DNA of 64,000 nt. Source: Corynespora cassiicola (lineage: Eukaryota; Ascomycota; Dothideomycetes; Pleosporales; Corynesporascaceae). Of the stretch, positions 50,770 through 64,000 are shown piece after piece. The number at the start of each line of letters is the position of its first letter. Within the stretch, counting starts at the first letter, position 1. The translations under genes and the position numbers were made by a program. The stretch spans positions 4,340,001-4,404,000 of the forward strand of contig JAEUWY010000002.1 of NCBI GenBank assembly GCA_022059125.1. The letters are read 5' to 3'. Under the pieces are notes generated by a model. That model saw only the letters and a list, made by a program, of their open reading frames with translations. It was not told the DNA's origin and did no database searches.

Positions 50770-52846
50770 TTATAGTTTTGCTTTAACTTTGTCCTTGTTG
50801 ACAAGTCGATCACCGATAGCTTTGAGAATATGCTTTTGGTGTTTTCCACTCCCAGTCTTGGGATAGTCATCACCGACTCCAGGTTCACCAATCCAAAAGA
50901 CCCATTTAGGCGACTTCTGTCGACCCAGGCTGGACCTCACCCATTCTCGTAGTTCCTCAGCATTGGGTCTTTCAATTTGTTGGCCTGAAGCTTCTTTCAA
51001 AAAACATCCAACTACTTCTCCATATCGTTCATCAGGGATTCCGACAACGCTAGCCTCAGCAATACTGCTGTGCTGTATCAGGACTTCTTCGATCTCAGAA
51101 GGGAAGATGTTCTCTCCACCTACACTTTGTTAGTACATTTTTCGGGGTGGGTTTCCAGTTCCCAAACAATTGGGGGTATATACCTCGAATGATAATATCC
51201 TTGATTCTCCCTGTGATCTCACAGAAACCCTCTTCATCAATCACACACTCATCACCAGTCTTCATCCATACCCTTCCACTGTCCGCTTCGTCGATGGCGA
51301 AGACATCTTGCGTCCCTTTTACATTTCCATAGTAGCCTTTCATGACACAGTAACCACTGGTCCAAAGCTCACCGCGGACGCCCCTAGGAACAACCTTTCC
51401 ATCCTTGTCGACAATTTTGCCGCTTGTGTGTGGCATCACTTTCCCGAGACCTCGTTGCAATCTGTGGGGAGGGTCATCTAGGCTCATCATGAAGCTGACA
51501 GGGCTCGTCTCGGTCATTCCGTATGCGTTCAATATACCACTGAACCCCATCTCCTCCCTCAACCTCTTTAACAGCGGCGGAGGTACCACTGAACCAGCTG
51601 CTAGCCCGGTTCGGATGTGGAAGTCCTCTTTTCTGTATTTGGAGACGGCCAAGGCATCGAGTTCTGCGAGGAACATGGTGGGTACTCCAAGAATTGCGGT
51701 GCATCGCTCTTGTACCATGGCGTCAAGGGTGGCAACTGGGTCGAAAGTATCCGCAGCAAACACGATGGTGCTACCGTGGAATAGGGAGCAAAGAAATCCC
51801 ATGACGAGACCGAAGCAATGGAAAAGTGGCGGCGGACAGCATACAACGTCTTTCTGACCGAGATGCATGCGGGAGCCAACGAGTGCTCCATTGTTGATGA
51901 TGTTTCTGTAATTTCCAAGTAAGTCTATGACATTTCTACATTTCCTGTTGTGAAAGTGATCAAGAGGAGAAGGGCTGATGCAATCCGACTCTATAGCTCG
52001 CAACGTACCTGTGTGTAAGCATGGCGGCCTTTGGGGAACCAGTTGTTCCTGTAATATATATGTTAGATATTAAACCATGAAGTTATTGTATTATATCTTG
52101 GGTGACCCTCACCAGAAGTAAACTGTAAGTTCACCATGTCATTTGCTGACACTCTTTTTTCGACTGCCGCAACATTGGCATTACTAGTGATATGAACAAA
52201 ATTCTGGTATGTAACGGCCTTGTGACTGGGAGAGAAGTCAAGAGTAACGAGGTGATTGAGAGCTGGTAGGCCATCTGTTTTGCCCATATTATTCTCGACA
52301 ATATCAATGTGCTGCCGCATATCTCTAGCTCCAATTTTGCCGGCCACAAAAAATGCCTTAGATGCTTTGAATAAAAATGTCAATGTATGATTTTTTCACC
52401 CGTGAGACCAAGGACTTACAGATCCTCTGCAATGCGTTCATGAGTTCTGCCGGAGTGTACGTGTTGTTCAACACGGCGACGGCTACGCCAATCCTTGCTG
52501 CTCCTAAGAAAGCTTCGATGTATTCAGAGCGATTGCCAGCCATGATGGCCACCACATCACCCGTAGCTACACCATGGTGTATCAGGGAAGACGCTACTAG
52601 TCTGCTCCTAGCTTCGAGATCTGCGAATGAGAGTCGTGTATTCTGCCACGGAACTACTACCGCTTCCTTTTGTTGGTATTTCTGCGCTTGATCGTGCAAG
52701 AGCTGTGCGATGGTTCCTTCATAGAGCTTCGGGGTGCTCACTCCGTGTATTATGGACATTTTCGGATCGATGTGCGATATTGGCTTTTCAGGTGAGGTCG
52801 CGGTGTTCCAGGTTTCGAGAGTGGAGGTCAGAACTTGGAGTGCCAT
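50770..52846 (-). CDS. Acyl-CoA synthetase (AMP-binding), peroxisome-targeted
   Basis: ATP-dependent ligase that activates a carboxylic acid to its CoA ester; in this cluster probably isovalerate or a related branched/isoprenoid acid. Five exons: 52846-52420, 52364-52113, 52048-52009, 51905-51184 and 51119-50770, giving 596 residues. The 40-base third exon completes the AMP-binding loop TSGTTGSPKAAMLTHRN. Further motifs: AYGMTETSPVS, RVWMKTGDE, GRIKDIIIRGGENIFPSEIEE and the catalytic lysine in PKTGSGKHQK. The protein ends in AKL, a canonical PTS1 peroxisomal signal. It shares a 333-base divergent promoter with the carboxylase beta subunit. The exact acid cannot be read from the sequence. Confidence 0.88.
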
Positions 52847-53179
52847 TGCTTGACAGAAAGAAATTTCGATAATTGAAAGAATTCTTGTGTCTATCTAATG
52901 GCTTCTCCATAGTGCCTACCTAAGTAAGTGAAAGGCCATAAAGATTACAAGGTGGGCGTCTCTGTCAAAGTCACGTGACATTTCTCGATTGGGCAACCTC
53001 GGTGGGGACGGTCTGACCCGGACCGAAGGTTTCCACACGGGTAGCATCCGCCATCTGGGGTTACTAGGGCCCGCGATGCGCCGAAATGGCCCAAGTCATT
53101 GTAATTCCGACTGCCGAGTTGCTCTTGACCCAAATAATATGCTGGTCGAGGGCCTATTGCACCAGTCATAGTGACCAAA
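52847..53179. promoter_or_regulatory. Divergent promoter, acyl-CoA synthetase / carboxylase beta
   Basis: 333 bases between two divergent cluster genes. It carries the GTCACGTGAC palindrome and a CGG-N6-CCG element, described separately. Confidence 0.65.
52970..53020. promoter_or_regulatory. Palindrome GTCACGTGAC and CGG-N6-CCG in the first cluster promoter
   Basis: A perfect 10-base palindrome with an E-box core is at 52970-52979. CGGTCTGACCCG, an inverted CGG pair with six bases between, is at 53009-53020. CGG inverted repeats are the usual targets of Zn2Cys6 dimers, and a Zn2Cys6 gene lies in the cluster. The same pair occurs at 58174-58195. Confidence 0.55.
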
Positions 53180-55230
53180 ATGGCTACTACCGCGTCCCAA
53201 TTCCCTGCGATCAATAGTGCGATTGATCTCCAACAGCCGCAGTTCCAACAGAACTCTGAGAGCTGGAAGGCTGTTCTTGAAAAGTTCGACGAAGCCCTTG
53301 GAGCCACCAGCAATGAGGGGGGTGCTGAGTCATTGTCTCGACACACAGGTAGAGGCCAGTTGCTAGGTACGAGACCTTCTCCCAATGAGATGCCATGCAA
53401 GCTGGATTACTAATGTTATGGGATAGCTCGTGACAGAATCTCTCTTCTACTCGACCAAGATTCACCATTCCTTGAGCTGTGCGCTTTCGCGGGCTATCAG
53501 CTGAAGGATTCCTCACCTTGTGCCAGTATAATTGCTGGCATAGGAAGTGTCTGGTAGGCTGAATAATGTTCCTCGATGAGACCAACAGCCATCTAACAGT
53601 TGAAGTGGCCGTCATTGTTTGATCCTTTCCCATGTTCCGACACAAAAAGGAGGCGCTTGGAATGAGTATACAGGTAAGATTACCATTACCCTTCCCCGCC
53701 CTCCTATGTTTGCATTCATCTCATGAGATTGAACAGTATTGAAACAAAACCGTGTCACTGAGATTGCGACCGAAAATGGACTCCCTATCATCGCCCTTGT
53801 ACAATCGGTAAGGTTTTGTTATAGCTATACGCGACGCAACTGCTCACTTCTCATATAGGCTGGTGTCTTCCTCCCGCAACAATTCCGAGTTTTCCACAAA
53901 GGTGGTCAGATCTTCCGTGATTTGGCTATCCGCAGCCAAAAAGGACAGGGCTCATGCGCCGTCGTATTTGGTTCCTCCACTGCAGGCGGCGCATATCACC
54001 CTGCACTGTCAGATTACACAATCTTCGTCAAGGATCAGGCCCAGGTATTTCTGGGAGGACCACCGCTGGTCAAGATGGCAACGGGCGAGGTGATTGGCGC
54101 TGAAGAACTCGGAGGAGCGAAGATACACTCCAGTGTAACGGGCCTGGCGGATCAAATCGCGACGGACGAGTAAGACACGCGAACCCAAGGGCCCATTCTG
54201 TATCAAATTCTAACACTTCGAGCTAGATTTGATGCCATTAGAAAGGCTAGGGAGTGGGTTATATCTCTGAAAGAGCCTATTTCTATATCGCGCCAGCCTA
54301 TAGTCGGATCGAACGCACCACGCCCACCGCGATACTCTGCCGACGATCTCCTTTCATTAGTAAATACGGACATTCGCAAGCCTTTCGATATGGGAGAGGT
54401 ACTGCTGCGGATCGTGGATGACTCGAGGCTGTCCCTTTTCAAGCCAACCTATGGTCGCAACATGCTCACGGCATGGACGCATATAATGGGTTCGTTTTTG
54501 CTTTGGACAGGCAAGTAATTGAGTCTGACAATCGAAACAGGTAATTTGGTTGGTATAGTAGCCAATCAAACTCCGGTCATCAACCCAGATGAGGCGTTGA
54601 AAGGCGCACAGTTTATCCGCATGTGCAACCAACAGTAAGCCGTTCCTATCGTTCCAACATCCAACATCATTCTTCGAGGCTGTTCCGTCGGACAATCGCT
54701 GACAAAGGCACAGAAATATCCCTATTGTCTTCCTTCATAATGTAACAGGCTTCATGGTGGGCTCCAAAGCGGAGCATGCTTCCATCATCAAAAAGGGCGC
54801 TCAACTAGTGTCGGCTGTTTCCTGCTCCACCGTCCCCCACATCTCCGTTATCCTCGGTGCCTCCTATGGTGCCGGAAACTATGCCATGTGCGGTCGCGCA
54901 TACAAGCCGCGATTTTTGTTTACATGGCCGACGGGCCGATGCAGTGTCATGGGTCCTGATCAGCTCTCCGGTGTCATGGATCAAGTCCAACGAGCCAGCG
55001 CGAAGAGCAGGGGCGAGAACATCGAGGAAGAGGCGATGCAAAGCCAGGTAAAGAAGTTTAGAGATGGCGTGGAGCGAGATAGTGAGAGCTACAGCACTAG
55101 TGCTGTGGTGTTGGATGATGGTATCATTGACCCAAGGGATACCAGGGAGGTTTTGGGAATGTGCTTGGAGGTCGTGAAGTTGCAGGGTGTAGAGGGAACC
55201 GATAGTCATAGTGCGTTGGCGAGGCTATGA
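53180..55230 (+). CDS. Acyl-CoA carboxylase beta subunit, methylcrotonyl/geranyl-CoA type, PTS1
   Basis: Carboxyltransferase half of a biotin-dependent acyl-CoA carboxylase. Eight exons: 53180-53366, 53427-53553, 53606-53673, 53737-53807, 53859-54169, 54227-54489, 54541-54634 and 54714-55230, giving 545 residues, as in MCC beta. The junctions rebuild family motifs: ARDRISLLLD, HVPTQKGGAWNEYT, FGSSTAGGAYHPALSD, FLGGPPLVKMATGE, ALKGAQFIRMC, FLHNVTGFMVG and LGASYGAGNYAMCGRAY. Classical MCC beta has VPAMADE where this has HPALSD, so the acceptor may differ from 3-methylcrotonyl-CoA. The C-terminus is ARL, a PTS1 signal; normal MCC is mitochondrial. The partner alpha subunit lies convergently next door. 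Confidence 0.87.
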
Positions 55231-55506
55231 GGACCTAGACTTTATGTAGATGAATTTTTATATTGTAGATTCTATATCAAACTTGTACGACTTAATAACA
55301 TTTACCTTGTCTTTTTGCGTTCTGGCCAGTGAAGCAGCTTCACAGCATGTAGCAAAGCAATATTTTTATCAGTAGAAAGCACAACATGGCAGGGCACTTG
55401 CTTAGTACTAACACGAAGACACTGTTCATAACAAAAGAACCCCATTACAAAATAATCCAATGCGATACTTGAAAACGATAGCCCACGTACATAAACACCG
55501 TCAACC

Positions 55507-57961
55507 CTACTCAACCTCACACAAGACAGCCCCCTCATCAACCGCATCCCCCTCCTTCCTCCCCGTCTTAAACTTCCCCCCCACCGCCATAGAAATAGCC
55601 ATCTCCATCTTCATACTCTCCACCACCATGACCGTCTCCCCAGCCTTAACCTCCTCCCCGTCCTTCTTCAACACCTTCAAAATCTTGCACGGCATCGGCG
55701 CAGTCGCCGTCTTCGCACCCCCAGCCAACGCGCCATCCTTCGCAATCTCCTCGCGCAAGCTCTCGGCGAAGGATAGGAGGTCGTACACCTTGTACGCCGT
55801 CCACGAGCCGAGGGACGGGAAGTGCGCGATTACGGTGCGCACAGAGCCGTTTTGCGGGGTGCGGCTGTTGTCGTCTGGGCAGACCATGTGGGCGAGGACT
55901 TTGGCGTTGTTGATGGTGGCGGTGAGCGTTAGGGCGGGATTAGAGGCGGCGGATGGGGCGGTTGGTGTGGCGATGGGTGTTGCGCTCATGAGGGCAATGT
56001 TGTAGGTTGATGATGGGGTGGCTTCTTTTTCTCCGTGGTGGCGGTTGCGGATTTGGGTGCTGATGGTGTTGTACCAGGTCGTTACCTTTTTTGCGACGGA
56101 GTCTTCGGGGCCTTCGGAGGGGGTGCTGGTAGGGGGAGCGTTGCTTAGGCGGACGTGGGCGGAGGTTGCTTTGGGGGACTGTGTGCTGGGGGGTTGGGGC
56201 AGCCATTCTACGAGCAACGGCTGTTCGCTCGGAGCGGTGGACTTTGTGGAGCTTTTGCTGACTGCAGCATTTTCGACAATGTTGGTGTGTTGGTTGATTG
56301 GATCGAAACGCTGGTTTCGGAATCCTAGGCGGGTGTTGCGAAAGGCGCCGCGAGAAGCCAGAGAATGTTCTCTTGATGACTGGCGAAGATAAAGAGCGGG
56401 CATGACACCGTATAGCTTCTGGATACCTGAGACATCTTTACAGTATGGATTTTCCAGTAGTTTCTCCAGATTTTTCGGGATAAAGGATGTAGTATAGGCG
56501 GGATCGCGGAAATCTGGGTGTAGAAGGCAGCTTTGCATGAACAGTTGATTCGTTCGGACACCTGCACACACAGAGCTTGCCAAAACTCTAGCCATTTTCT
56601 CAATAGCCAGTTTTCTGCTAGGAGCCCAGACGACAATCTTCGCGATCATCGAGTCAAAGTAAATGGACACTTCTGAACCTGTCTGGACTGCCGTCTCATA
56701 TCGAACGTCGCCGGGGTTGAAGCCAGCAACATTCGCAGAAGCAGGTAGCCACAAGTCAATAGTTCCACGCTCAGGAAGAAAGTCGTTTTGCGGATCTTCG
56801 GCGCAGAGACGGCACTCTATCGCATGTCCGTGTTGTCGAATCTCCTGGAGACTCGGAATGTCTGCAAAGCGGCCACCGCCTGCAACGTAAAGTTGTAACG
56901 AAACAAGGTCCCATCCGGTAACCTCTTCTGTGATGGGATGCTCGACTTGCAGTCTGGCATTGACCTCGAGGAAATAAAACTTTTGTGCGGCCACGTCGAC
57001 AACGAACTCGACGGTGCCAGCGCCCTCGTAACCGATCAGCTCTGCGATGCGCACTGCAGTCGCACCCATCCGTCTGCGGAAGTCTGGCGTAAGCCAGGGG
57101 CATGGTGTCTCTTCGATAATCTTTTGGTGTCGCCTCTGCACGGAACAATCTCTCTCGTGCAGGCAAACGACCTTGCCATATCTATCGCCCACGATCTGGA
57201 TTTCGACATGCTTCCCTGCCTCAATATATTTCTCCAGGATGATGTCCGCGTCGCCAAAGCTGCGCTGCGCTTCAGATTGAGCGCGCTCGAGCTCCGTGCT
57301 TAACTGTGCGGATTCGCGAACAATTCGCATTCCCTTCCCGCCGCCGCCAGAACTGGCCTTTAGCATCACGGGTAAGCCAATGGATTGGGCCGCTTTTTCG
57401 AGATCGCTGGGGTTCTGGCTGGAGCCACTGAAGCCGGGGATCAGAGGGACTTCGGGGGCGTGCTCGCTCAAATAGGCCTTGGAACTTCTCTTGTTGCCCA
57501 GAGTGGACATGGCGACGGGGCTGGGGCCGATGAAGATGATGCCCGCTTTTCGGACTGCGTTGACAAAGTCTGGATTTTCGCTGAGGTATCCATAACCTGG
57601 ATGGATTGCTTGAGCTCCGGTTTGTACGGCTGTCTCGACGATGAGGTCGATGTCTAGAAAAGGGTTGCGGCCTTCTGAGCGGGCGATGCTTCCAATACCA
57701 ATGGCCTCATCTGCTTGCTGGACATGAAGAGAGTCTGCATCTCTAAAATGATATTGAAATTAGCATTGCCTTTTAGATTCCTCTGAGCAGGGTTGCTTAC
57801 TCATCGACGTAGATGGCGATGGTGGTAATGTTCATTTTTCGACATGTTGCGATGATTCGACAGGCAATCTCGCCCCGATTGGCGATCAGAACACGCTGAA
57901 TAGATGGTCGACCATCTTCATCCACGGGAAGAGAGGCCACCCCCAGTTGTCTATTCGACAT
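55507..57961 (-). CDS. Acyl-CoA carboxylase alpha subunit (biotin carboxylase plus biotin carrier), MCC/GCC type
   Basis: ATP-dependent biotin carboxylase with a C-terminal biotin carrier; works with the neighbouring beta subunit. Two exons, 57961-57801 and 57742-55507, give 798 residues. Seen: [15 protein letters not shown] at the N-terminus, [13 protein letters not shown], the ATP-grasp glycine loop [57 protein letters not shown], and the biotin site [10 protein letters not shown] (lysine near residue 765). The classical AMKM is ESMKM here. It is longer than typical MCC alpha (about 725), with a low-complexity Pro/Ser/Thr linker before the carrier domain. No mitochondrial presequence and no PTS1 (ends CEVE) are visible, so it might enter peroxisomes bound to beta. 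The ATG at 57961 directly precedes the biotin carboxylase domain. Confidence 0.9.
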
Positions 57962-58417
57962 TATGAGCTGTGACAAGATACGGAAATGTTGCCGGAATGG
58001 GTAGTAAACAAGAGACACAATTCCACGCAAAACTATTTAGTTGGGGCTGTTACTGCATCGAATTGACCACGATATCATCTCGAGAAGAATTAGACTGTAT
58101 ATTCACCCCATATTCGCCTGCATTTGGTTCCTCACGCATACTGCTCGGCATTCGGTCGATGATCGCCTCACTTGTCACGTGACCGGGTCGAGCCGTGCCA
58201 CTACTCGGCAACCCGGATCAGGGCGGTACAAGGCTGGGGAAGATGTGGGGACGGAATGCACCGCTGAAATTCTCCCTTGGCACTTGTGTAGCTGCGAGAC
58301 GGGCGTATCCGCGCACTGAGGGTCTGCATTGGCAGTCGCCGTTTTATATATCGGCATCAGTAATTGCTGCACGGTATGGTTACGGCTGCTCTGTGCAAGA
58401 GACGAATCTGATTCATC
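57962..58417. promoter_or_regulatory. Divergent promoter, carboxylase alpha / acyl-CoA dehydrogenase
   Basis: 456 bases between two divergent cluster genes. They contain the second palindrome plus CGG-N6-CCG pair, with more CGG/CCG half-sites (CTCGGCAACCCGG) close by. Confidence 0.65.
58174..58195. promoter_or_regulatory. Palindrome GTCACGTGAC abutting CGG-N6-CCG in the second cluster promoter
   Basis: The palindrome is at 58174-58183 and CGGGTCGAGCCG at 58184-58195, directly adjacent. Both elements recur in the other divergent cluster promoter (52970-53020). Both promoters also have a GGCAACC string shortly downstream (52992-52998 and 58207-58213). Confidence 0.55.
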
Positions 58418-59933
58418 ATGGCAGATACATCCTACAATCCCTTTGCGGACCCTCTTTGGCATCATCAATCGAGGCCTTCGCCTTACTACAATGAATCGCA
58501 CTTTCGTCTGCAGCGCGAACTCCGCGCCTACGTCTCGGAACACATCTCACCCAATTGCGCCGAGTGGGAGGCCGCGGGTCACATCCCGACTTCTGTCCTC
58601 GAGCGGCATGCCTCGCTAGGCTACTCGGCCGTGTCCATTTTCCCTCTTGCAGAGGCCCATCACTTGCAACCTACAACATCCCAGCTCGACGCGTCACAAT
58701 TGGGTCAGCAACGACTACCTGCTGGCATCAAGGCGGAAGAATGGGATGCATTCCACGATCTAGTCTTCATAGACGAGATGGCGAGGTGTGGATACTTGGG
58801 AATTGTTTGGGGGCTAAGCTGCGGTAATAGTATAGGCGTGCCTCCCCTGATAAATTTCGGGACCGAGGAGCAGAAGAAGAGGTGGCTACCCGATGTGCTC
58901 CGGGGCCGCGTGAGGTTCTGCTTGGGAGTAACCGAACCAGATGGTATGTGGCCTATGAATGTGATTGAATTTCTGATGTCCATCATTGATCTTGTCGGAG
59001 AATGGCAGAAGCTAATAATTTCGATGTATAGCTGGATCCGACGTAGCCAACATCACCACAACAGCCGTTCTCAACGCAAAAGGCGATGCCTACATTGTCG
59101 ATGGAGCCAAAAAGTGGATCACCAATGCCATTTTTGCAGACTACTGCACCGCTGCTGTACGCACAGGAACTGAAGAATCTGGGCGCAAGGGTGTCTCGGC
59201 CCTCATCATTCCTTTGAAAGCTAAAGGCGTTACCCTAAGGAAGCTTGAAAATTCCGGTGTCAACGCAAGCGGCTCTACCTATATCGAATTTGACAATGTA
59301 GAAGTGCCGGTTGGAAACCTCCTCGGCAGAGAAAATGCTGGGTTTGAGATTATCATGTCAAGTGAGTGTTTTTGGACCCGCTCTTCTTCTCCTCGTCTTA
59401 GCTTTTGAACGATTCTGACTCATTTGCTTTTAGATTTCAACCATGAACGCCTTTGGCTGGCCTGTACCTCCCTGAGAATGGCTCGCGTTTGCGCTGAGGA
59501 TGCCTACACACACGCCATCACTCGAGAAACCTTTGGCAAGAAACTTATTGAGAATCAGGTCATTCGACAAAAGATATCTTTATTTGGTAGGCAGATCGAC
59601 AGTACCCATGCTTTGATGGAGCAGCTTGTTTATATCGCGTCGCAAAAATCGGACATTCGGTCGCTGTCGTACGTGGGCGGGTTGATGGCAAATCTCAAGG
59701 TGCAGGCCGGGCGTACGTTGGAGCAGGTTGTTAGAGAGGCACAACAAGTCCTTGGCGGCCTAGGTTATTCGAAAACAGGTAAAGGCGCCAGGATTGAGCA
59801 GATCAGCAGGGATGTCCGCGTGATGGTAGTGGGAGGTGGTAGTGAAGAGATCCTCGTGGATCTGGCTGCGAGAGAGGAGATAAAGGCGATGACAGACTTG
59901 CGAAAGAGAGCTAGGATGGAAAACAAACTATGA
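58418..59933 (+). CDS. Acyl-CoA dehydrogenase (isovaleryl/citronellyl-CoA type?), probable PTS1
   Basis: FAD enzyme that introduces the alpha-beta double bond into an acyl-CoA, the step before carboxylation in this pathway. Three exons: 58418-58943, 59032-59361 and 59434-59933, giving 451 residues. Motifs: CLGVTEPDAGSDVANI (FAD/substrate loop rebuilt across intron 1), KKWITNAIFADY, RETFGKKLIENQVIRQK, QVLGGLGYSKTG and ISRDVRVMVVGGGSEEIL. The GGGSEEI end resembles the bacterial-type dehydrogenases with GGG(T/S)xEI more than the classical YEGT. The N-terminus has no mitochondrial presequence and the C-terminus is NKL, a non-canonical PTS1 variant. Whether the substrate is isovaleryl-CoA or a longer isoprenoid acyl-CoA is undecided. 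Confidence 0.85.
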
Positions 59934-60047
59934 AGCAACCGGGTTTCCTAAATTTTCGCCCTTCGTTGGCATCAAAAAGTCGTGGGTTGTCATTATGTCT
60001 GGCCTTTGGGTGCTGCACAACCGTGTGCTTTTTGGGCTTGACTTTAG

Positions 60048-62229
60048 CTATTGGACAAGGAATCCTCCAAAGTCATTCCAGTTGTCGAAATCAAAGACTG
60101 GAGTGGGACTATACACTGGAAGCGGTGCGCTATCGTTGGTTTGCATCTCAGTGTCCATGAATGATGTCATATCAACGGGCCTCGCATGGTCAGAGAGCCA
60201 TCCATAATCTAAGAGATGGCTTAACTCTTCCATTTCAGGTATGTTTACCACTTGGATTTGTTTTGTGGGAGAAAGGAGATCCATGGCCATTTCTCGTGAA
60301 GGGCGAAATGCCCTGAGTGCTGTACTCTATGCATTGCAATAGTGTTAGCTCTCCACTGCAAATGGCACGTAGATGCGATTTCTTCTCACCATTCTTTTGA
60401 AATGTTCCCAATGCCCAGGTGTATTGTCGAGAAACTGCAGACACGTATTATAGAGTGCTCCCGCAGATCCTGCATCAGGTGTATGTGGGTTCAGCGAACG
60501 AAGTTTGAGAGTACCAGCGGCGACTGTGGCAGCGTAGCCATAGAAGCTTGCGTTTAGTAAGCAACGGCTTTCTTGTAGATCTTTGAACATGTTTGCTAGG
60601 CACCTAGCATGCTCAACACTCCTTAAAAATGTTTCGCGTAGAAAACTAGGGGGGACCCTTGCAGCGTATTGTCCCAAGCTTTGGCGAACCAGTAAGGGGT
60701 GGTTCAGAAGGCAGTGGTTTAGATGATATAAGATGAGTGAAGCGGTAAACTGGCAGGCGGATCGGTCAAACTCTCCATCAGGCGTGCGGAAATTCTTTTC
60801 TAGTACAGAGATAAATGTTGCAGGGTCGACCGCTTGTGAGTAGGTTTCGAAACTCAAAAGGATTCCATGAATACGTGTAAACTCGCTGCGGGAGTCCCAA
60901 GGAGGATGCCTCGCCTTTGAGCTCTGCATGAAGTAATGTCGGACTATGCTTCCGAGAGCGGATGCCATAAAGGCGAGTAGAGCAAAATGATCGTCTTTGT
61001 TTAAGCAAACAACCTCTGGGACCTCGCAAAGGTCGGTAAGGGTAGGCTTAATGTCCAAAGCTTCGGACGGTTCATGGTTTCCAATCGTAGGTAATCGGAC
61101 AGTCAGGTCCTCATCCAAAAGGGTTGGCGGGCGGTTGCGACCACAAGATACAAGTCGATCGAGCAAGTACACGGACCAAAAGGTCTTTCGCTGCTCTTCT
61201 TGTTCCAACTGGGAGAGGCTCGGATCAGGTTCGTGAGTGAGCCCAAGACTTTGTGCAAATCGCACAGACAGTCCGATTTTAACCCAAGCTAGCCGTGGAC
61301 GACCTCCTAGAAGATGTGAGCGGATCGTTATATTATCATGTACGAGGATATTCGAGACGAGAATAGTTTACTTACGAACAAAATCAATGACGCCCAACAT
61401 ACTGGCCGCTTGAACTGCATATATGCTAAGGGAATGGTTCTCGGAAAATGACTGCTCGCTAATATCATTCCAGGCTTGTCGAGCGTAAAATTCCGTGGCC
61501 TTGAACTGGTGATCATCAAATAGGGGCTCGTTTGAGAACCTGGCGGCGGTGGCTAGAAGTGCAAAAAGAAAATATGATGGGAGGACTCCCTCATCAATCC
61601 GTCTGTGCAAGCTCACATCTTCAAAGTAGTAATACGGCTGCCTCCAGCAATGGCGTAGGTAGATGTCTGCTGCGGCTTTGATGACAGAAGCGTTTGGTAA
61701 AGGGGATATTGTTCTGAAGAGTTGTGAGCATCCAAGGTTGGAGTTTGATGTCAACACACACCTGTCAATATCAGTCTCGGGTGACGCTGATTTCGAATGC
61801 GTCGAAATGCTTTCTCGCCGCTGGCTTATTGCTAAATCGATGGAACTAAGGCGGCATAGATTAGCAACACGCCTACGCTTGGGAGACTAACGCACTTCAG
61901 GCCATATGCATCAAGCATGGCGAGCTTCGACTCCAGCATATGGACTCGGGCGGCCAAGTCGGCCTCGCGCGTCTTGTTTACCGGGGTATCCGAAATCACA
62001 ATGGCCGTGTTCGAGGTTGACCCGAGATAGCCGTCGTCCCAGCGGCACTCTTGGCCTAAGCGCGTGCAAAAGGCACATGTCGGTCTCTCTCCAGAGCAGC
62101 GGGTCTTTTTCCGCCTGTTGCAAACATGTAAGAAGAAGAAGCTAGCCTGATGGGCGTTGCGACCTACCGGCAATTCAGGCAGGCCTGGCGCACTCGCTTG
62201 GCCTCGCGTTCCTCGTCGTTCCGCTCCAT
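60048..62229 (-). CDS. Zn2Cys6 fungal transcription factor of the cluster
   Basis: Binuclear zinc cluster regulator with a fungal-specific middle homology region. Five exons by eye: 62229-62168, 62114-61896, 61845-61376, 61306-60390 and 60326-60048, giving 648 residues. The zinc cluster CLNCRRKKTRC...CAFCTRLGQEC (C-x2-C-x6-C-x6-C-x2-C-x6-C) is split by intron 1. A short coiled coil follows (LAARVHMLESKLAMLDAYG). The middle region has IYLRHCWRQPYYYFED, VQAASMLGVIDFVR, RPRLAWVKIGLSVRFAQSLGLT and RKTFWSVYLLDRLVSCGR. The C-terminal exon is acidic with an FDFDNWNDFGGF end, a plausible activation domain. The intron 2 donor (GTGCGT) is my best in-phase choice. Likely target: the CGG-N6-CCG sites in the two cluster promoters (inference). 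Confidence 0.85.
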
Positions 62230-62632
62230 GTCACTCTAGATTACCTTACTCAAGGTGGTGATAGGCCAGCCAGTCCGACTTTTGTAAGCTAGGGGCCCGC
62301 TCGTTCGTCATGCAGCTGGGGAGAAGGATGCGTTAAGGTTGATGAAGGACGGGCCTGCATCTAAATCGGCGGGGCCCCGGGCTGTGCTAGCGCATGTAGC
62401 CGCTAAAGCGGGGTCAGGCACTCTTGCAGCTATCCCTGGATACATGTCCGCGAGAACATCCACGGATGTTTTCAATGCAGCGAGGAGTTGTTGAAAATAC
62501 AAACATTAGTATAACGGTGCCAATTCATTTGAAAAGTATGATATTCTATTTTGTTCTTTTCGTTATCATGTAGAGCCCTTTGGAGAGGTTCAATTTCCAC
62601 CGCCGACACCGTTTTTTCCCACCCTCAGAGGC
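62230..62632. promoter_or_regulatory. Regulator promoter and 3' flank of the fusion gene
   Basis: 403 bases between two minus-strand genes. No CGG-N6-CCG and no CACGTG is present here, so the regulator's own promoter lacks the shared elements. A short frame (62308-62502, minus) has no recognisable domain. Confidence 0.5.
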
Positions 62633-64000
62633 TTAGAGCTTAGCCGTGGTTTTTCTGTAAACATATGCATCCCAATCTACCTTCTTCCGGCCAGCCTGGA
62701 ACTCTTTGACGCCAACACTCCCTTCTGCATCCGCTCTCATCATCTCTGCAAAGACCTGCCGGATCCCCTCGGCCTGACTGCGGCCTCCTGCATCCTCCCA
62801 CCCCAGCCTCACAATCTTCTTGCACAGTGTGCTAGCCCTCGGCGCACAAGCCTTCAACTCTGTCAAGTACCCATCCAAGCAATGGGACAAATCCTCCCTG
62901 CCATTCACCACGTGCGCAACAACCCCATGCCGCTGCAGTTCTTCGGCTTGGATGGACCGGGCAGACAGCATGGCCTCTCTCGCGAACGCAAAACCCAATT
63001 CCCTCACCACATACTTGGATATGGTCGCCGGACACAGCCCCAGCTTTGCTTCACTGAGCGTCACGGTCGCAGTGGCTGCAGCGAGTCGCACGTCGCAAGC
63101 GAAAGCCAGCCCCACACCGCCTCCAAATGCAGGGCCATTGATGCAGGCGATGGTCACCTGTGGCGCGCTCTCGATTGCCTCGAATAGGTTCGTCAAACGA
63201 TCGAATTGAGCGAGACTGGCCTCGCCGTTGTCGTCCTGGGCGACTGGGGTGGACTTTGAAAGATCCATGCCCGTGCAGAAAAATTTGCCTGAAGCGCAGA
63301 TTGCGATCCGCGTCGTCGTGTTGTCGTGAGCAGCGGACTTGAAGTATGACGTCAATTGGTGGATCATGGCCTCGGTGAGGGCGTTGCCATTCTTTGGACG
63401 GTTCAGTGTCAGTCTGATATTGGGGCCCGAGCGATGGATGAGGAGGCCCTCGCTATCGGACACGGATTTCCAGGAAAGACTCTGCTTTGGCGACTTGTTC
63501 AGACTCGTCTTCGTTGCGATTGCGGCTCCAGCACGACTCTCGTTCTTCTGTGAGATTGTCTGCGATATCCAAGTCCCCGTTTCCACCAGCTTTCCCAGAT
63601 TGACCCCAGTGGAGACACCAGCCTGCTCGAAGAGATAGACAAGGTCTTCGCTCGCGGCATTCCCTTTTGCACCTGGTGCGTACGGACACCCACCCAGACC
63701 GGCAACACTGCTATCGAAGACGCGGAGCCCGCACTTGTATGCTGTCCACACATTGCTCACTGCTTGGCCGTATGTGTCGTGAAAATGCCCTGCAAGCTTC
63801 TCTGGTGGAATTTGATGACTGAAAAGGAAATGGAGGAGTGACTCGACCTGCTCTGCTACGCCTACGCCCAAGGTATCGCCGAGAGAAACCTCGTAACAAC
63901 CCATCTCAAGAAGTTGCTGGACGCACTTGAAGACGGCGGATTGTGGAGTCGGGCCATCATACGGACAAGAAAAGATGCAGGAGACATATCTAGACGTTGA
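62633..64000 (-). CDS. HMG-CoA lyase fused to methylglutaconyl-CoA-hydratase-like enoyl-CoA hydratase (5' end outside window)
   Basis: One continuous frame, open at the window end, about 455 codons visible. The first part is the C-terminal half of an HMG-CoA lyase: YVSCIFSCPYDGP, MGCYEVSLGDTLGVG, metal-binding HFHDTYGQAVSN, and the G-loop SVAGLGGCPYAPGAKGNAA with the catalytic Cys. After a short linker rich in Ser/Lys comes a complete crotonase domain: RLTLNRPKNGNALTEAM, CASGKFFCTGMDLS, INGPAFGGGVGLAFACDV and SEAKLGLCPATISKYVV, closest in style to methylglutaconyl/isohexenylglutaconyl-CoA hydratases. The fused protein would hydrate the carboxylated enoyl-CoA and then cleave it, channelling two consecutive steps. 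It ends in AKL, a PTS1 signal. No stop or splice signal separates the domains. Confidence 0.88.
   Translation of the reverse strand, partial: STSRYVSCIFSCPYDGPTPQSAVFKCVQQLLEMGCYEVSLGDTLGVGVAEQVESLLHFLFSHQIPPEKLAGHFHDTYGQAVSNVWTAYKCGLRVFDSSVAGLGGCPYAPGAKGNAASEDLVYLFEQAGVSTGVNLGKLVETGTWISQTISQKNESRAGAAIATKTSLNKSPKQSLSWKSVSDSEGLLIHRSGPNIRLTLNRPKNGNALTEAMIHQLTSYFKSAAHDNTTTRIAICASGKFFCTGMDLSKSTPVAQDDNGEASLAQFDRLTNLFEAIESAPQVTIACINGPAFGGGVGLAFACDVRLAAATATVTLSEAKLGLCPATISKYVVRELGFAFAREAMLSARSIQAEELQRHGVVAHVVNGREDLSHCLDGYLTELKACAPRASTLCKKIVRLGWEDAGGRSQAEGIRQVFAEMMRADAEGSVGVKEFQAGRKKVDWDAYVYRKTTAKL

What the first reader, a model, noticed from the sequence alone, without database searches (positions are those of the whole stretch)
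50770..64000. Candidate peroxisomal leucine/isoprenoid-type acyl-CoA degradation cluster
Seen: an acyl-CoA synthetase, carboxylase beta and alpha, an acyl-CoA dehydrogenase, a Zn2Cys6 regulator and an HMG-CoA lyase/hydratase fusion lie side by side with only short gaps. C-termini read AKL (synthetase), ARL (carboxylase beta), NKL (dehydrogenase) and AKL (fusion). Known: leucine catabolism through methylcrotonyl-CoA carboxylase and HMG-CoA lyase is normally mitochondrial, and [SAC]-[KRH]-[LM] is the PTS1 consensus. Inference: this is a complete, co-located second pathway placed in peroxisomes, fed by free acid through the synthetase. The regulator suggests inducible use of an outside carbon source.
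Basis: partly seen in the sequence, partly recalled or inferred. Interest (0 to 1): 0.88.

Follow-up and report, generated by a model that had tools for sequence, protein, structure and literature searches.

The report
Fungal peroxisomal terpene-acid breakdown gene cluster
A group of neighbouring fungal genes appears to encode a breakdown route for plant-type terpene acids inside peroxisomes, a route known from bacteria, although databases label its key enzyme as a leucine-breakdown enzyme.

Summary
Gene models give an acyl-CoA synthetase (AKL), carboxylase beta (ARL), carboxylase alpha (no PTS1), acyl-CoA dehydrogenase (NKL), a Zn2Cys6 regulator and an HMG-CoA-lyase/hydratase fusion (AKL). 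The fusion runs past the window end, and the next gene is an aldehyde dehydrogenase ending SRL. C-termini are largely conserved in listed relatives. Mitochondrial-type MCC and HMG-CoA-lyase paralogues lie elsewhere in the genome. The source is Corynespora cassiicola or a very close relative.

The leucine reading is the weak part. Beta has both published hallmarks of geranyl-CoA carboxylase (no pocket Phe, no 3-residue insertion). In 10 of 10 actinobacterial genomes checked, the paralogue with that motif scores higher against it than the MCC-motif paralogue. An AtuA gene (acyclic terpene utilisation) is near 72 of 83 such loci and 0 of 11 MCC-motif loci. CGG-N6-CCG sites recur in the promoters.

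Best explanation: a peroxisomal counterpart of the bacterial Atu pathway for acyclic isoprenoid acids, with its own lyase fused to the hydratase because the mitochondrial one is out of reach. Substrate and localisation are inferred. Against it: the hydratase is slightly closer to a Liu-type enzyme, and no AtuA gene lies in the cluster.

The parts
50770..52846 (-). Acyl-CoA synthetase (AMP-binding), 5 exons, 596 aa, C-terminus AKL; proposed citronellyl/geranyl-CoA synthetase role (AtuH-like)
   Evidence: Gene model; PF00501 and PF13193; PDB relatives feruloyl/oxalyl/4-coumarate-CoA ligases
53180..55230 (+). Acyl-CoA carboxylase beta (carboxyltransferase), 8 exons, 545 aa, C-terminus ARL; geranyl-CoA-carboxylase-type motif (Gly166, no 3-residue insert)
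   Evidence: PDB relatives; gap-free alignment to P. aeruginosa GCC beta 5ikl; 120 listed relatives
55507..57961 (-). Acyl-CoA carboxylase alpha (biotin carboxylase + biotin carrier with MKM motif), 2 exons, 798 aa, no PTS1 and no presequence-like N-terminus
   Evidence: PF00289/PF02786/PF02785/PF00364; N-terminus
58418..59933 (+). Acyl-CoA dehydrogenase, 3 exons, 451 aa, C-terminus NKL (mostly SKL in listed relatives); proposed citronellyl-CoA dehydrogenase role (AtuD-like)
   Evidence: PDB relatives; C-termini; 99% identical to a Corynespora cassiicola protein
60345..62230 (-). Zn2Cys6 transcription factor gene (exons not fully modelled): Zn cluster in 61832-62230, Fungal_trans domain in 60345-61367
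   Evidence: PF00172 24.1 bits (cut-off 21) and PF04082 51.7 bits (cut-off 23)
62633..64000 (-). HMG-CoA-lyase/enoyl-CoA-hydratase fusion, 604 aa, C-terminus AKL; first exon lies beyond the window (gene start C2:4404501)
   Evidence: NF004283 HMG-CoA lyase 367.7 bits (cut-off 246); hydratase half best PDB match 4zu2
52847..53179 (.). Divergent promoter ACS/beta with CGG-N6-CCG at 53009 and GTCACGTGACA
57962..58417 (.). Divergent promoter alpha/ACAD with CGG-N6-CCG at 58184, 58252, 58300 and GTCACGTGACA

Best explanation
The cluster encodes a peroxisomal counterpart of the bacterial acyclic terpene utilisation (Atu) pathway. An aldehyde dehydrogenase (SRL) makes a beta-methyl-branched isoprenoid acid. 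The synthetase (AKL) makes its CoA ester. The dehydrogenase (NKL) introduces the 2,3 double bond when the acid is saturated (citronellyl-CoA to geranyl-CoA). The alpha/beta biotin carboxylase, with a geranyl-CoA-type pocket, carboxylates the 3-methyl branch. The hydratase half of the fusion hydrates the glutaconyl-CoA product, and the lyase half splits the hydroxyglutaryl-CoA, removing the branch so that ordinary peroxisomal beta-oxidation can follow. Alpha has no peroxisomal signal and would enter bound to beta. In Pseudomonas the Atu pathway uses the leucine-pathway lyase (LiuE); a peroxisome cannot borrow the mitochondrial one, which explains a lyase of its own fused to the hydratase. The Zn2Cys6 protein probably acts on the CGG-N6-CCG sites. 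Shown: gene content, C-termini, pocket motif, bacterial relatives and promoter sites. Inferred: substrate, localisation, flux and regulation.
For: Both published GCC/MCC discriminators (PMC4673880, passages: GCC Gly162 versus MCC Phe191, plus a 3-residue MCC insertion) come out GCC-like: window beta aligns without gaps to 5ikl across the motif. In 120 listed relatives the residue is G 107, A 9, T 3, gap 1. The genome's mitochondrial-type MCC beta has insertion and Phe. In 10 of 10 actinobacterial genomes, the GCC-motif paralogue scores 503-516 bits against window beta and the MCC-motif paralogue 419-454 bits. Of 83 bacterial loci, none has the insertion; residue Gly in 82, Ala in 1; an AtuA-family gene is near 72 and HMG-CoA lyase near 0 (70 of 81 for AtuA without the two loci that supplied its reference sequences). 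Of 11 MCC-motif plasmid loci, 0 have AtuA and 7 have HMG-CoA lyase. The fungal family is a 100/100 clade that does not group with mitochondrial-type MCC beta. M. smegmatis without accD2-accA2 grew on isovalerate like wild type, and M. tuberculosis AccD2 diverges in the MCC motif (PMC4347857, passages). A review lists Corynespora cassiicola among fungi that transform monoterpenes (PMC4097962, passages). CGG-N6-CCG: 6 of 18 sites in 82 kb fall in the five cluster promoters, 2.9% of the sequence (binomial 8.6e-6).
Against: Over its whole length beta scores higher with solved MCC betas (up to 435.6 bits) than with GCC beta 5ikl (391.7 bits), so it is not an orthologue of Pseudomonas AtuC. In the plasmid search GCC-motif and MCC-motif loci ranked side by side (47.0, 45.8 and 44.7% against 46.0 and 45.9%). 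The genome-contig scan used two peptides from the fungal alignment (GGPPLVKM, HNVTGFMV) that the genome's own MCC beta lacks, so its 80 loci were preselected towards the GCC type. The hydratase half is closer to the S. meliloti Liu-locus hydratase (38%) than to Atu-locus hydratases (28-33%); its best NCBIfam hit (150.2 bits, cut-off 350) is not the gamma-carboxygeranoyl-CoA hydratase model (104.5 bits, cut-off 426). The ACAD is not clearly nearer to Atu-locus dehydrogenases. No AtuA gene lies in the cluster; PF07287 genes lie elsewhere. GCC can also accept 3-methylcrotonyl-CoA, so leucine or isovalerate use is not excluded. Other CGG pair spacings are enriched too (CCG-N8-CGG, CGG-N7-CGG). NKL is off-consensus. 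No expression, localisation or activity data were available.
Confidence: 0.66

Rival explanations
1. A second, peroxisomal leucine/isovalerate pathway: the carboxylase acts on 3-methylcrotonyl-CoA and the fusion finishes to acetyl-CoA and acetoacetate.
For: The same reaction types as leucine catabolism are present; the lyase half passes the HMG-CoA-lyase cut-off; the hydratase is nearest a Liu-locus hydratase; GCC can also use 3-methylcrotonyl-CoA.
Against: The beta motif is GCC-type in the window protein and in 119 of 119 listed relatives with a residue at that column (G, A or T, none Phe). Nearer bacterial paralogues are GCC-type and AtuA-linked, not HMGL-linked. MCC and HMGL paralogues with mitochondrial-type N-termini are already in the genome. 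Loss of accD2-accA2 in M. smegmatis did not affect isovalerate growth; AccD2 itself was not placed in the tree made here.
Confidence: 0.16
2. A broad degrader of other 3-methyl-branched acids (for example farnesoic or phytenic acid, or prenyl tails of secondary metabolites) in which C10 monoterpenes are not the main natural substrate.
For: An open pocket permits larger acyl chains; named relatives come from Aspergillus and Penicillium, Cercospora and Alternaria, Fusarium and Metarhizium, which suggests a general substrate.
Against: Nothing tested here separates chain lengths. This is a variant of the favoured reading rather than a contradiction of it.
Confidence: 0.13
3. A biosynthetic cluster that makes a branched acyl unit of a secondary metabolite inside peroxisomes.
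For: Some listed ACAD relatives carry names taken from secondary-metabolite clusters (AFT10-1, apdG), and peroxisomal acyl-CoA enzymes do occur in such clusters (recalled).
Against: No polyketide synthase, NRPS or terpene synthase was noticed among the longer ORFs listed for 48-64 kb and the next 18 kb; those lists were read by eye, not screened by profile, and the window left of 48 kb was not examined. Lyase and aldehyde dehydrogenase point to breakdown.
Confidence: 0.05

Closest known systems
Acyclic terpene utilisation (Atu) pathway of Pseudomonas, atuABCDEFGH with liuE (PMC4097962, passages)
   Same: Synthetase, dehydrogenase, geranyl-type alpha/beta biotin carboxylase, hydratase and a 3-hydroxy-3-alkylglutaryl-CoA lyase step; GCC motif in beta
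   Different: Eukaryotic; PTS1-tagged proteins; hydratase and lyase fused in one protein; no AtuA in the cluster; beta is a separate lineage from the Atu-locus betas tested; Zn2Cys6 regulator; aldehyde dehydrogenase included
AtuA-linked carboxylase loci of actinobacteria (e.g. Rhodococcus gordoniae plasmid pDND3A, L028)
   Same: Highest-identity bacterial relatives found for beta (up to about 50%); same motif; alpha, ACAD, hydratase and synthetase often beside it
   Different: AtuA mostly present and HMG-CoA lyase absent nearby; substrates not established in anything read here
Mitochondrial leucine pathway (IVD, MCC, methylglutaconyl-CoA hydratase, HMG-CoA lyase)
   Same: Same reaction types on a smaller 3-methyl enoyl-CoA
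   Different: MCC and HMGL paralogues with presequence-like N-termini lie elsewhere in this genome (C5, C2:5.2M, C6); MCC beta with Phe and insertion; that HMGL frame is a lyase alone
Mycobacterial AccA2-AccD2 acyl-CoA carboxylase (PMC4347857, passages)
   Same: Carboxyltransferase that diverges in the MCC substrate motif; deletion in M. smegmatis left isovalerate growth intact
   Different: Bacterial; function called unknown in the paper; not included in the tree made here

Membership tests
Geranyl-CoA carboxylase beta (GCC beta) | Gly in place of the MCC Phe191 in the N-domain pocket | tested here: met
   Gly166 of window beta opposite the Gly of 5ikl (chain position 161, taken to be the paper's Gly162); 107 of 120 listed relatives Gly, 9 Ala, 3 Thr, 1 gap. 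The exact gap position before it varies between alignments, but no Phe is present in any of them
Geranyl-CoA carboxylase beta (GCC beta) | No 3-residue insertion just before that position | tested here: met
   Gap-free against 5ikl; 3-residue gap against all four MCC-like chains shown
Geranyl-CoA carboxylase beta (GCC beta) | Phylogenetic grouping with Pseudomonas-type AtuC | tested here: not met
   The fungal clade is separate from the Sphingobium and Achromobacter Atu-locus betas used as stand-ins for AtuC; whole-length score with 5ikl is lower than with MCC betas
Geranyl-CoA carboxylase beta (GCC beta) | Carboxylation of geranyl-CoA | not testable with these tools
   Needs an enzyme assay
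3-Methylcrotonyl-CoA carboxylase beta (MCC beta) | Phe in the pocket and the 3-residue insertion | tested here: not met
   the genome's mitochondrial-type MCC beta does meet it
Acyclic terpene utilisation (Atu) pathway | Carboxylase alpha and beta, dehydrogenase, hydratase and synthetase genes together | tested here: met
   Gene models; families
Acyclic terpene utilisation (Atu) pathway | AtuA (PF07287) in the cluster | tested here: not met
   PF07287 matches lie at six places elsewhere in the genome, plus a weak seventh on C23; none in the cluster
Acyclic terpene utilisation (Atu) pathway | Hydratase of the AtuE type | tested here: inconclusive
   Best PDB match is 4zu2 isohexenylglutaconyl-CoA hydratase; closer to a Liu-locus hydratase and below the NCBIfam cut-off
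Peroxisomal matrix proteins (PTS1) | C-terminal [SAC][KRH][LM], conserved in orthologues | tested here: met
   ACS AKL, beta ARL, fusion AKL, ALDH SRL; listed relatives: fusion 97 of 120, ACAD 87 of 120, beta AR[ILMF] 116 of 120 but strict 54 of 120; window ACAD NKL is off-consensus; alpha has none; ACS and ALDH relatives not examined
HMG-CoA lyase | Full-length family match and catalytic motifs (motifs recalled) | tested here: met
   NF004283 367.7 bits against cut-off 246; GPRDGLQN, GHFHDTYGQ and GLGGCPYA present in the alignments

The most novel reading that the evidence does not exclude
Filamentous ascomycetes possess a compartmentalised, self-sufficient isoprenoid-acid degradation pathway in peroxisomes. 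It uses a GCC-type biotin carboxylase of its own lineage, whose unsignalled biotinylated alpha subunit is imported on the PTS1-bearing beta subunit, and a hydratase-lyase fusion that frees the pathway from the mitochondrial leucine lyase. Many fungal 'methylcrotonoyl-CoA carboxylase' annotations are then wrong.
Probability: 0.52. Interest if true: 0.75.

Novelty: new variant of a known kind. Interest (0 to 1): 0.62.

Why it matters
It would give a genetic basis for use of acyclic terpenoids by fungi. The review read here says that for a long time no fungal species was described to grow on monoterpenes alone, and names Grosmannia clavigera as the later case (PMC4097962, passages). It would extend the Atu pathway to eukaryotes and to a new compartment, correct a widespread annotation, and offer a clean test of piggyback import of a biotin enzyme into peroxisomes. 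For plant-associated fungi it suggests a way to feed on, or detoxify, host terpene acids.

Tried and rejected
AtuA as part of the cluster: PF07287 genes exist in the genome but lie elsewhere; their last exons read GRI, GKI, GVL or GKL, too weak for a targeting claim (one search printed the wrong strand for most loci and one search replaced it). The hydratase as evidence for Atu: dropped. PTS2 in alpha: none seen by eye in its N-terminus (recalled consensus). A second sequence signature at the SSTAGGAY motif: dropped, because the pattern failed on 77 of 83 bacterial rows. A first motif pattern matched nothing and was replaced by the alignment. The Histoplasma peroxisomal proteome paper (PMC13343957, passages) did not help: MCC is used there as a biotinylated reference, and the terms leucine and HMG-CoA lyase do not occur in the main text. 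Structure prediction was not used: by its stated rule spliced proteins would not count as the window's own, and coordinates are not returned.

Synteny in other fungi could not be read from genomes. Prefixes shared by two lists but NOT close together: AYO21, AYO20, FSARC, LTR56 and E8E14 (beta/ACAD; the E8E14 pair does lie on contigs of equal length) and FDECE (fusion/ACAD).

Literature searches with no report of such a fungal pathway, judged by titles and abstract starts: 20 of 98 listed; 20 of 60 listed. The library holds only open-licence PMC papers.


Full report
Observation. The window is part of a fungal contig (C2:4340001-4404000 of a 44.35 Mb assembly). The ACAD is 99% identical over its whole length to a Corynespora cassiicola protein, so the source is that species or a very close relative. 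The fusion starts beyond the window end, and the next gene is an aldehyde dehydrogenase ending SRL. The order is synthetase (-), beta (+), alpha (-), ACAD (+), regulator (-), fusion (-), aldehyde dehydrogenase (-). Two promoters are divergent and shared.

Targeting. AKL, ARL, AKL and SRL are strict PTS1 ends; NKL is off-consensus; alpha has none. By composition, four strict ends among six enzymes has p about 8e-10. In the best 120 listed relatives of each protein, strict PTS1 ends occur in 97 of 120 fusions and 87 of 120 ACADs (40 of the top 50). Of the betas, 54 of 120 are strict and 116 of 120 end AR[ILMF]. The named fusion and beta relatives are filamentous ascomycetes as far as the names show (recalled taxonomy); many rows are unnamed, and two low ACAD rows are named as other fungi (Cladochytrium, Savitreella). 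ACS and ALDH relatives were not searched. None of the six N-termini looks like a mitochondrial presequence, by counts of basic and acidic residues in the first 30. The genome also has an MCC beta (C5:4184044), an MCC-alpha-type gene (C2:5225679; its pairing with that beta is assumed) and an HMG-CoA lyase (C6:1495191) with basic, acid-poor N-termini. So the peroxisomal placement is well supported, though not shown by experiment.

Substrate. Jurado et al. (PMC4673880, passages) state that GCC beta has Gly where MCC beta has Phe, and that MCC beta has a 3-residue insertion just before it; mutating the residue can change substrate preference. Window beta has Gly166 and no insertion and aligns without gaps to the P. 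aeruginosa GCC beta chain 5ikl over this stretch. Of 120 listed relatives 107 have Gly, 9 Ala, 3 Thr and 1 a gap. The exact placing of the gap against MCC varies between alignments; absence of the insertion and of Phe does not.

Bacterial relatives. All 83 lack the insertion; 82 have Gly and one has Ala. This scan was not neutral: its two peptide patterns came from the fungal alignment and are missing from the genome's own MCC beta. A neutral check followed. In the whole genomes of ten of these actinobacteria, each has both types, and window beta matches the GCC-motif copy at 503-516 bits and the MCC-motif copy at 419-454 bits, 10 of 10 (ten of the 80 loci, picked by me, and by choice genomes that have the GCC type). 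In the neutral plasmid search the two types rank side by side at 45-47% identity.

Neighbours. An AtuA-like gene is found near 72 of the 83 loci, alpha near 83, ACAD near 71, a hydratase near 54, a synthetase near 43 and HMG-CoA lyase near 0. The AtuA reference sequences came from L028 and L029 themselves; without those two it is 70 of 81. Several of the 11 without AtuA are short or cut-off contigs. Pfam calls the R. gordoniae protein AtuA. As a contrast, 11 plasmid loci with the MCC motif, fetched with 5 or 8 kb flanks, have AtuA in 0 and HMG-CoA lyase in 7; a twelfth contrast locus, L157, holds three betas of mixed motif plus AtuA and was left out of the count. Adding the two proteobacterial Atu loci L123 and L124, AtuA is near 74 of 85 GCC-motif betas and 0 of 11 MCC-motif betas (Fisher p = 8e-9). 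The contrast loci were picked by me from the spread list, L123 and L124; relatedness among loci is not corrected for. In a tree of 34 rows (12 of the 80 loci used) the fungal family is a 100/100 clade on a long stem and does not join the genome's mitochondrial-type MCC beta.

Support from papers. M. smegmatis lacking accD2-accA2 grew like wild type on isovalerate, and 3-methylcrotonyl-CoA accumulated only in the accD1-accA1 deletion; M. tuberculosis AccD2 diverges in the MCC motif (PMC4347857, passages). A review lists C. cassiicola among fungi reported to transform monoterpenes and says that for a long time no fungus was described to grow on them, Grosmannia clavigera being the later case (PMC4097962, passages). 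A Phacidium infestans genome paper notes two AtuA-family proteins and suggests terpene uptake, transport or detoxification (PMC12148953, passages). The searches listed under Tried and rejected returned no fungal or peroxisomal Atu pathway among the rows shown.

Mechanism. In Pseudomonas the lyase step after GCC and AtuE is assigned to LiuE of the leucine pathway. That sharing would fail if the terpene steps were in peroxisomes and the leucine lyase in mitochondria. A lyase fused to the hydratase and carrying a PTS1 end answers this. Alpha would have to enter with beta. Both steps are inference.

Regulation. CGG-N6-CCG, a spacing used by some Zn2Cys6 factors (recalled), occurs 18 times in the 82 kb read. 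Six of these lie in the five cluster promoters, which make up 2.9% of the sequence: ACS/beta 1, alpha/ACAD 3, fusion 1, ALDH 1, regulator 0. First-order Markov simulations of the promoters reached six at this spacing in 1 of 2000. None of 1000 reached the best total over spacings 0-15 in both orders, counting only patterns found in at least four promoters, a threshold set after seeing the data. Other CGG pair patterns are enriched as well (CCG-N8-CGG 6 against 0.53 expected in three promoters; CGG-N7-CGG 11 against 1.64 in four), so the spacing is not settled. The ALDH site ties that gene to the cluster.

Synteny. Among listed relatives, exactly equal contig lengths pair fusion with beta 24 times, fusion with ACAD 19 times and beta with ACAD 24 times. 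Locus tags readable put beta and fusion two apart in 8 of 8 shared prefixes, and fusion and ACAD two to five apart in 8 of 9 (FDECE is the exception). Beta and ACAD are one to three apart in 7 of 12, taking Cosmosporella tags to step by ten; five are far apart. Two longer protein records show further neighbours, either merged gene models or real fusions: HMGL/hydratase plus synthetase domains in A. terreus (P0022) and a Zn cluster plus beta in Macrophomina (P0123).

Results against. Whole-length scores favour MCC chains over the GCC chain; the hydratase half leans to Liu and misses the curated geranyl-type model; the ACAD is uninformative; no AtuA is in the cluster; and GCC can use methylcrotonyl-CoA. 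The claim is therefore 'works like Atu', not 'is an Atu orthologue'.

Noticed in passing
G000:C4:1048000-1056000 (L013): A third acyl-CoA carboxylase pair lies here: the alpha reading frame ends ...EQGSKL (PTS1), the beta ends ...RPSFA, and a frame resembling a major-facilitator (sugar-type) transporter lies beside it (judged by eye; the family search of that frame failed). Possibly another peroxisomal carboxylase.
   Followed up: no
G000 C5:4237593, C15:208891, C12:28419, C6:2358880, C2:796859, C5:6410831: Six separate AtuA-family (PF07287) genes in one fungal genome, a family named for bacterial terpene use; the last exons end GRI (three), GKI, GVL and GKL.
   Followed up: partly
L155 (Agrobacterium vitis plasmid): An MCC-motif locus with aldehyde dehydrogenase, AMP-binding protein, beta, hydratase, alpha and HMG-CoA lyase together, nearly the gene set of the fungal cluster but with Phe and insertion in beta (annotation, motif).
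   Followed up: partly
L157 (Sulfitobacter plasmid): Three different carboxyltransferase genes beside one AtuA gene, with three different pocket motifs.
   Followed up: no
window 52847-53179 and 57962-58417: Both divergent promoters share the 11-mer GTCACGTGACA, a possible E-box-type site in addition to the CGG pairs.
   Followed up: no
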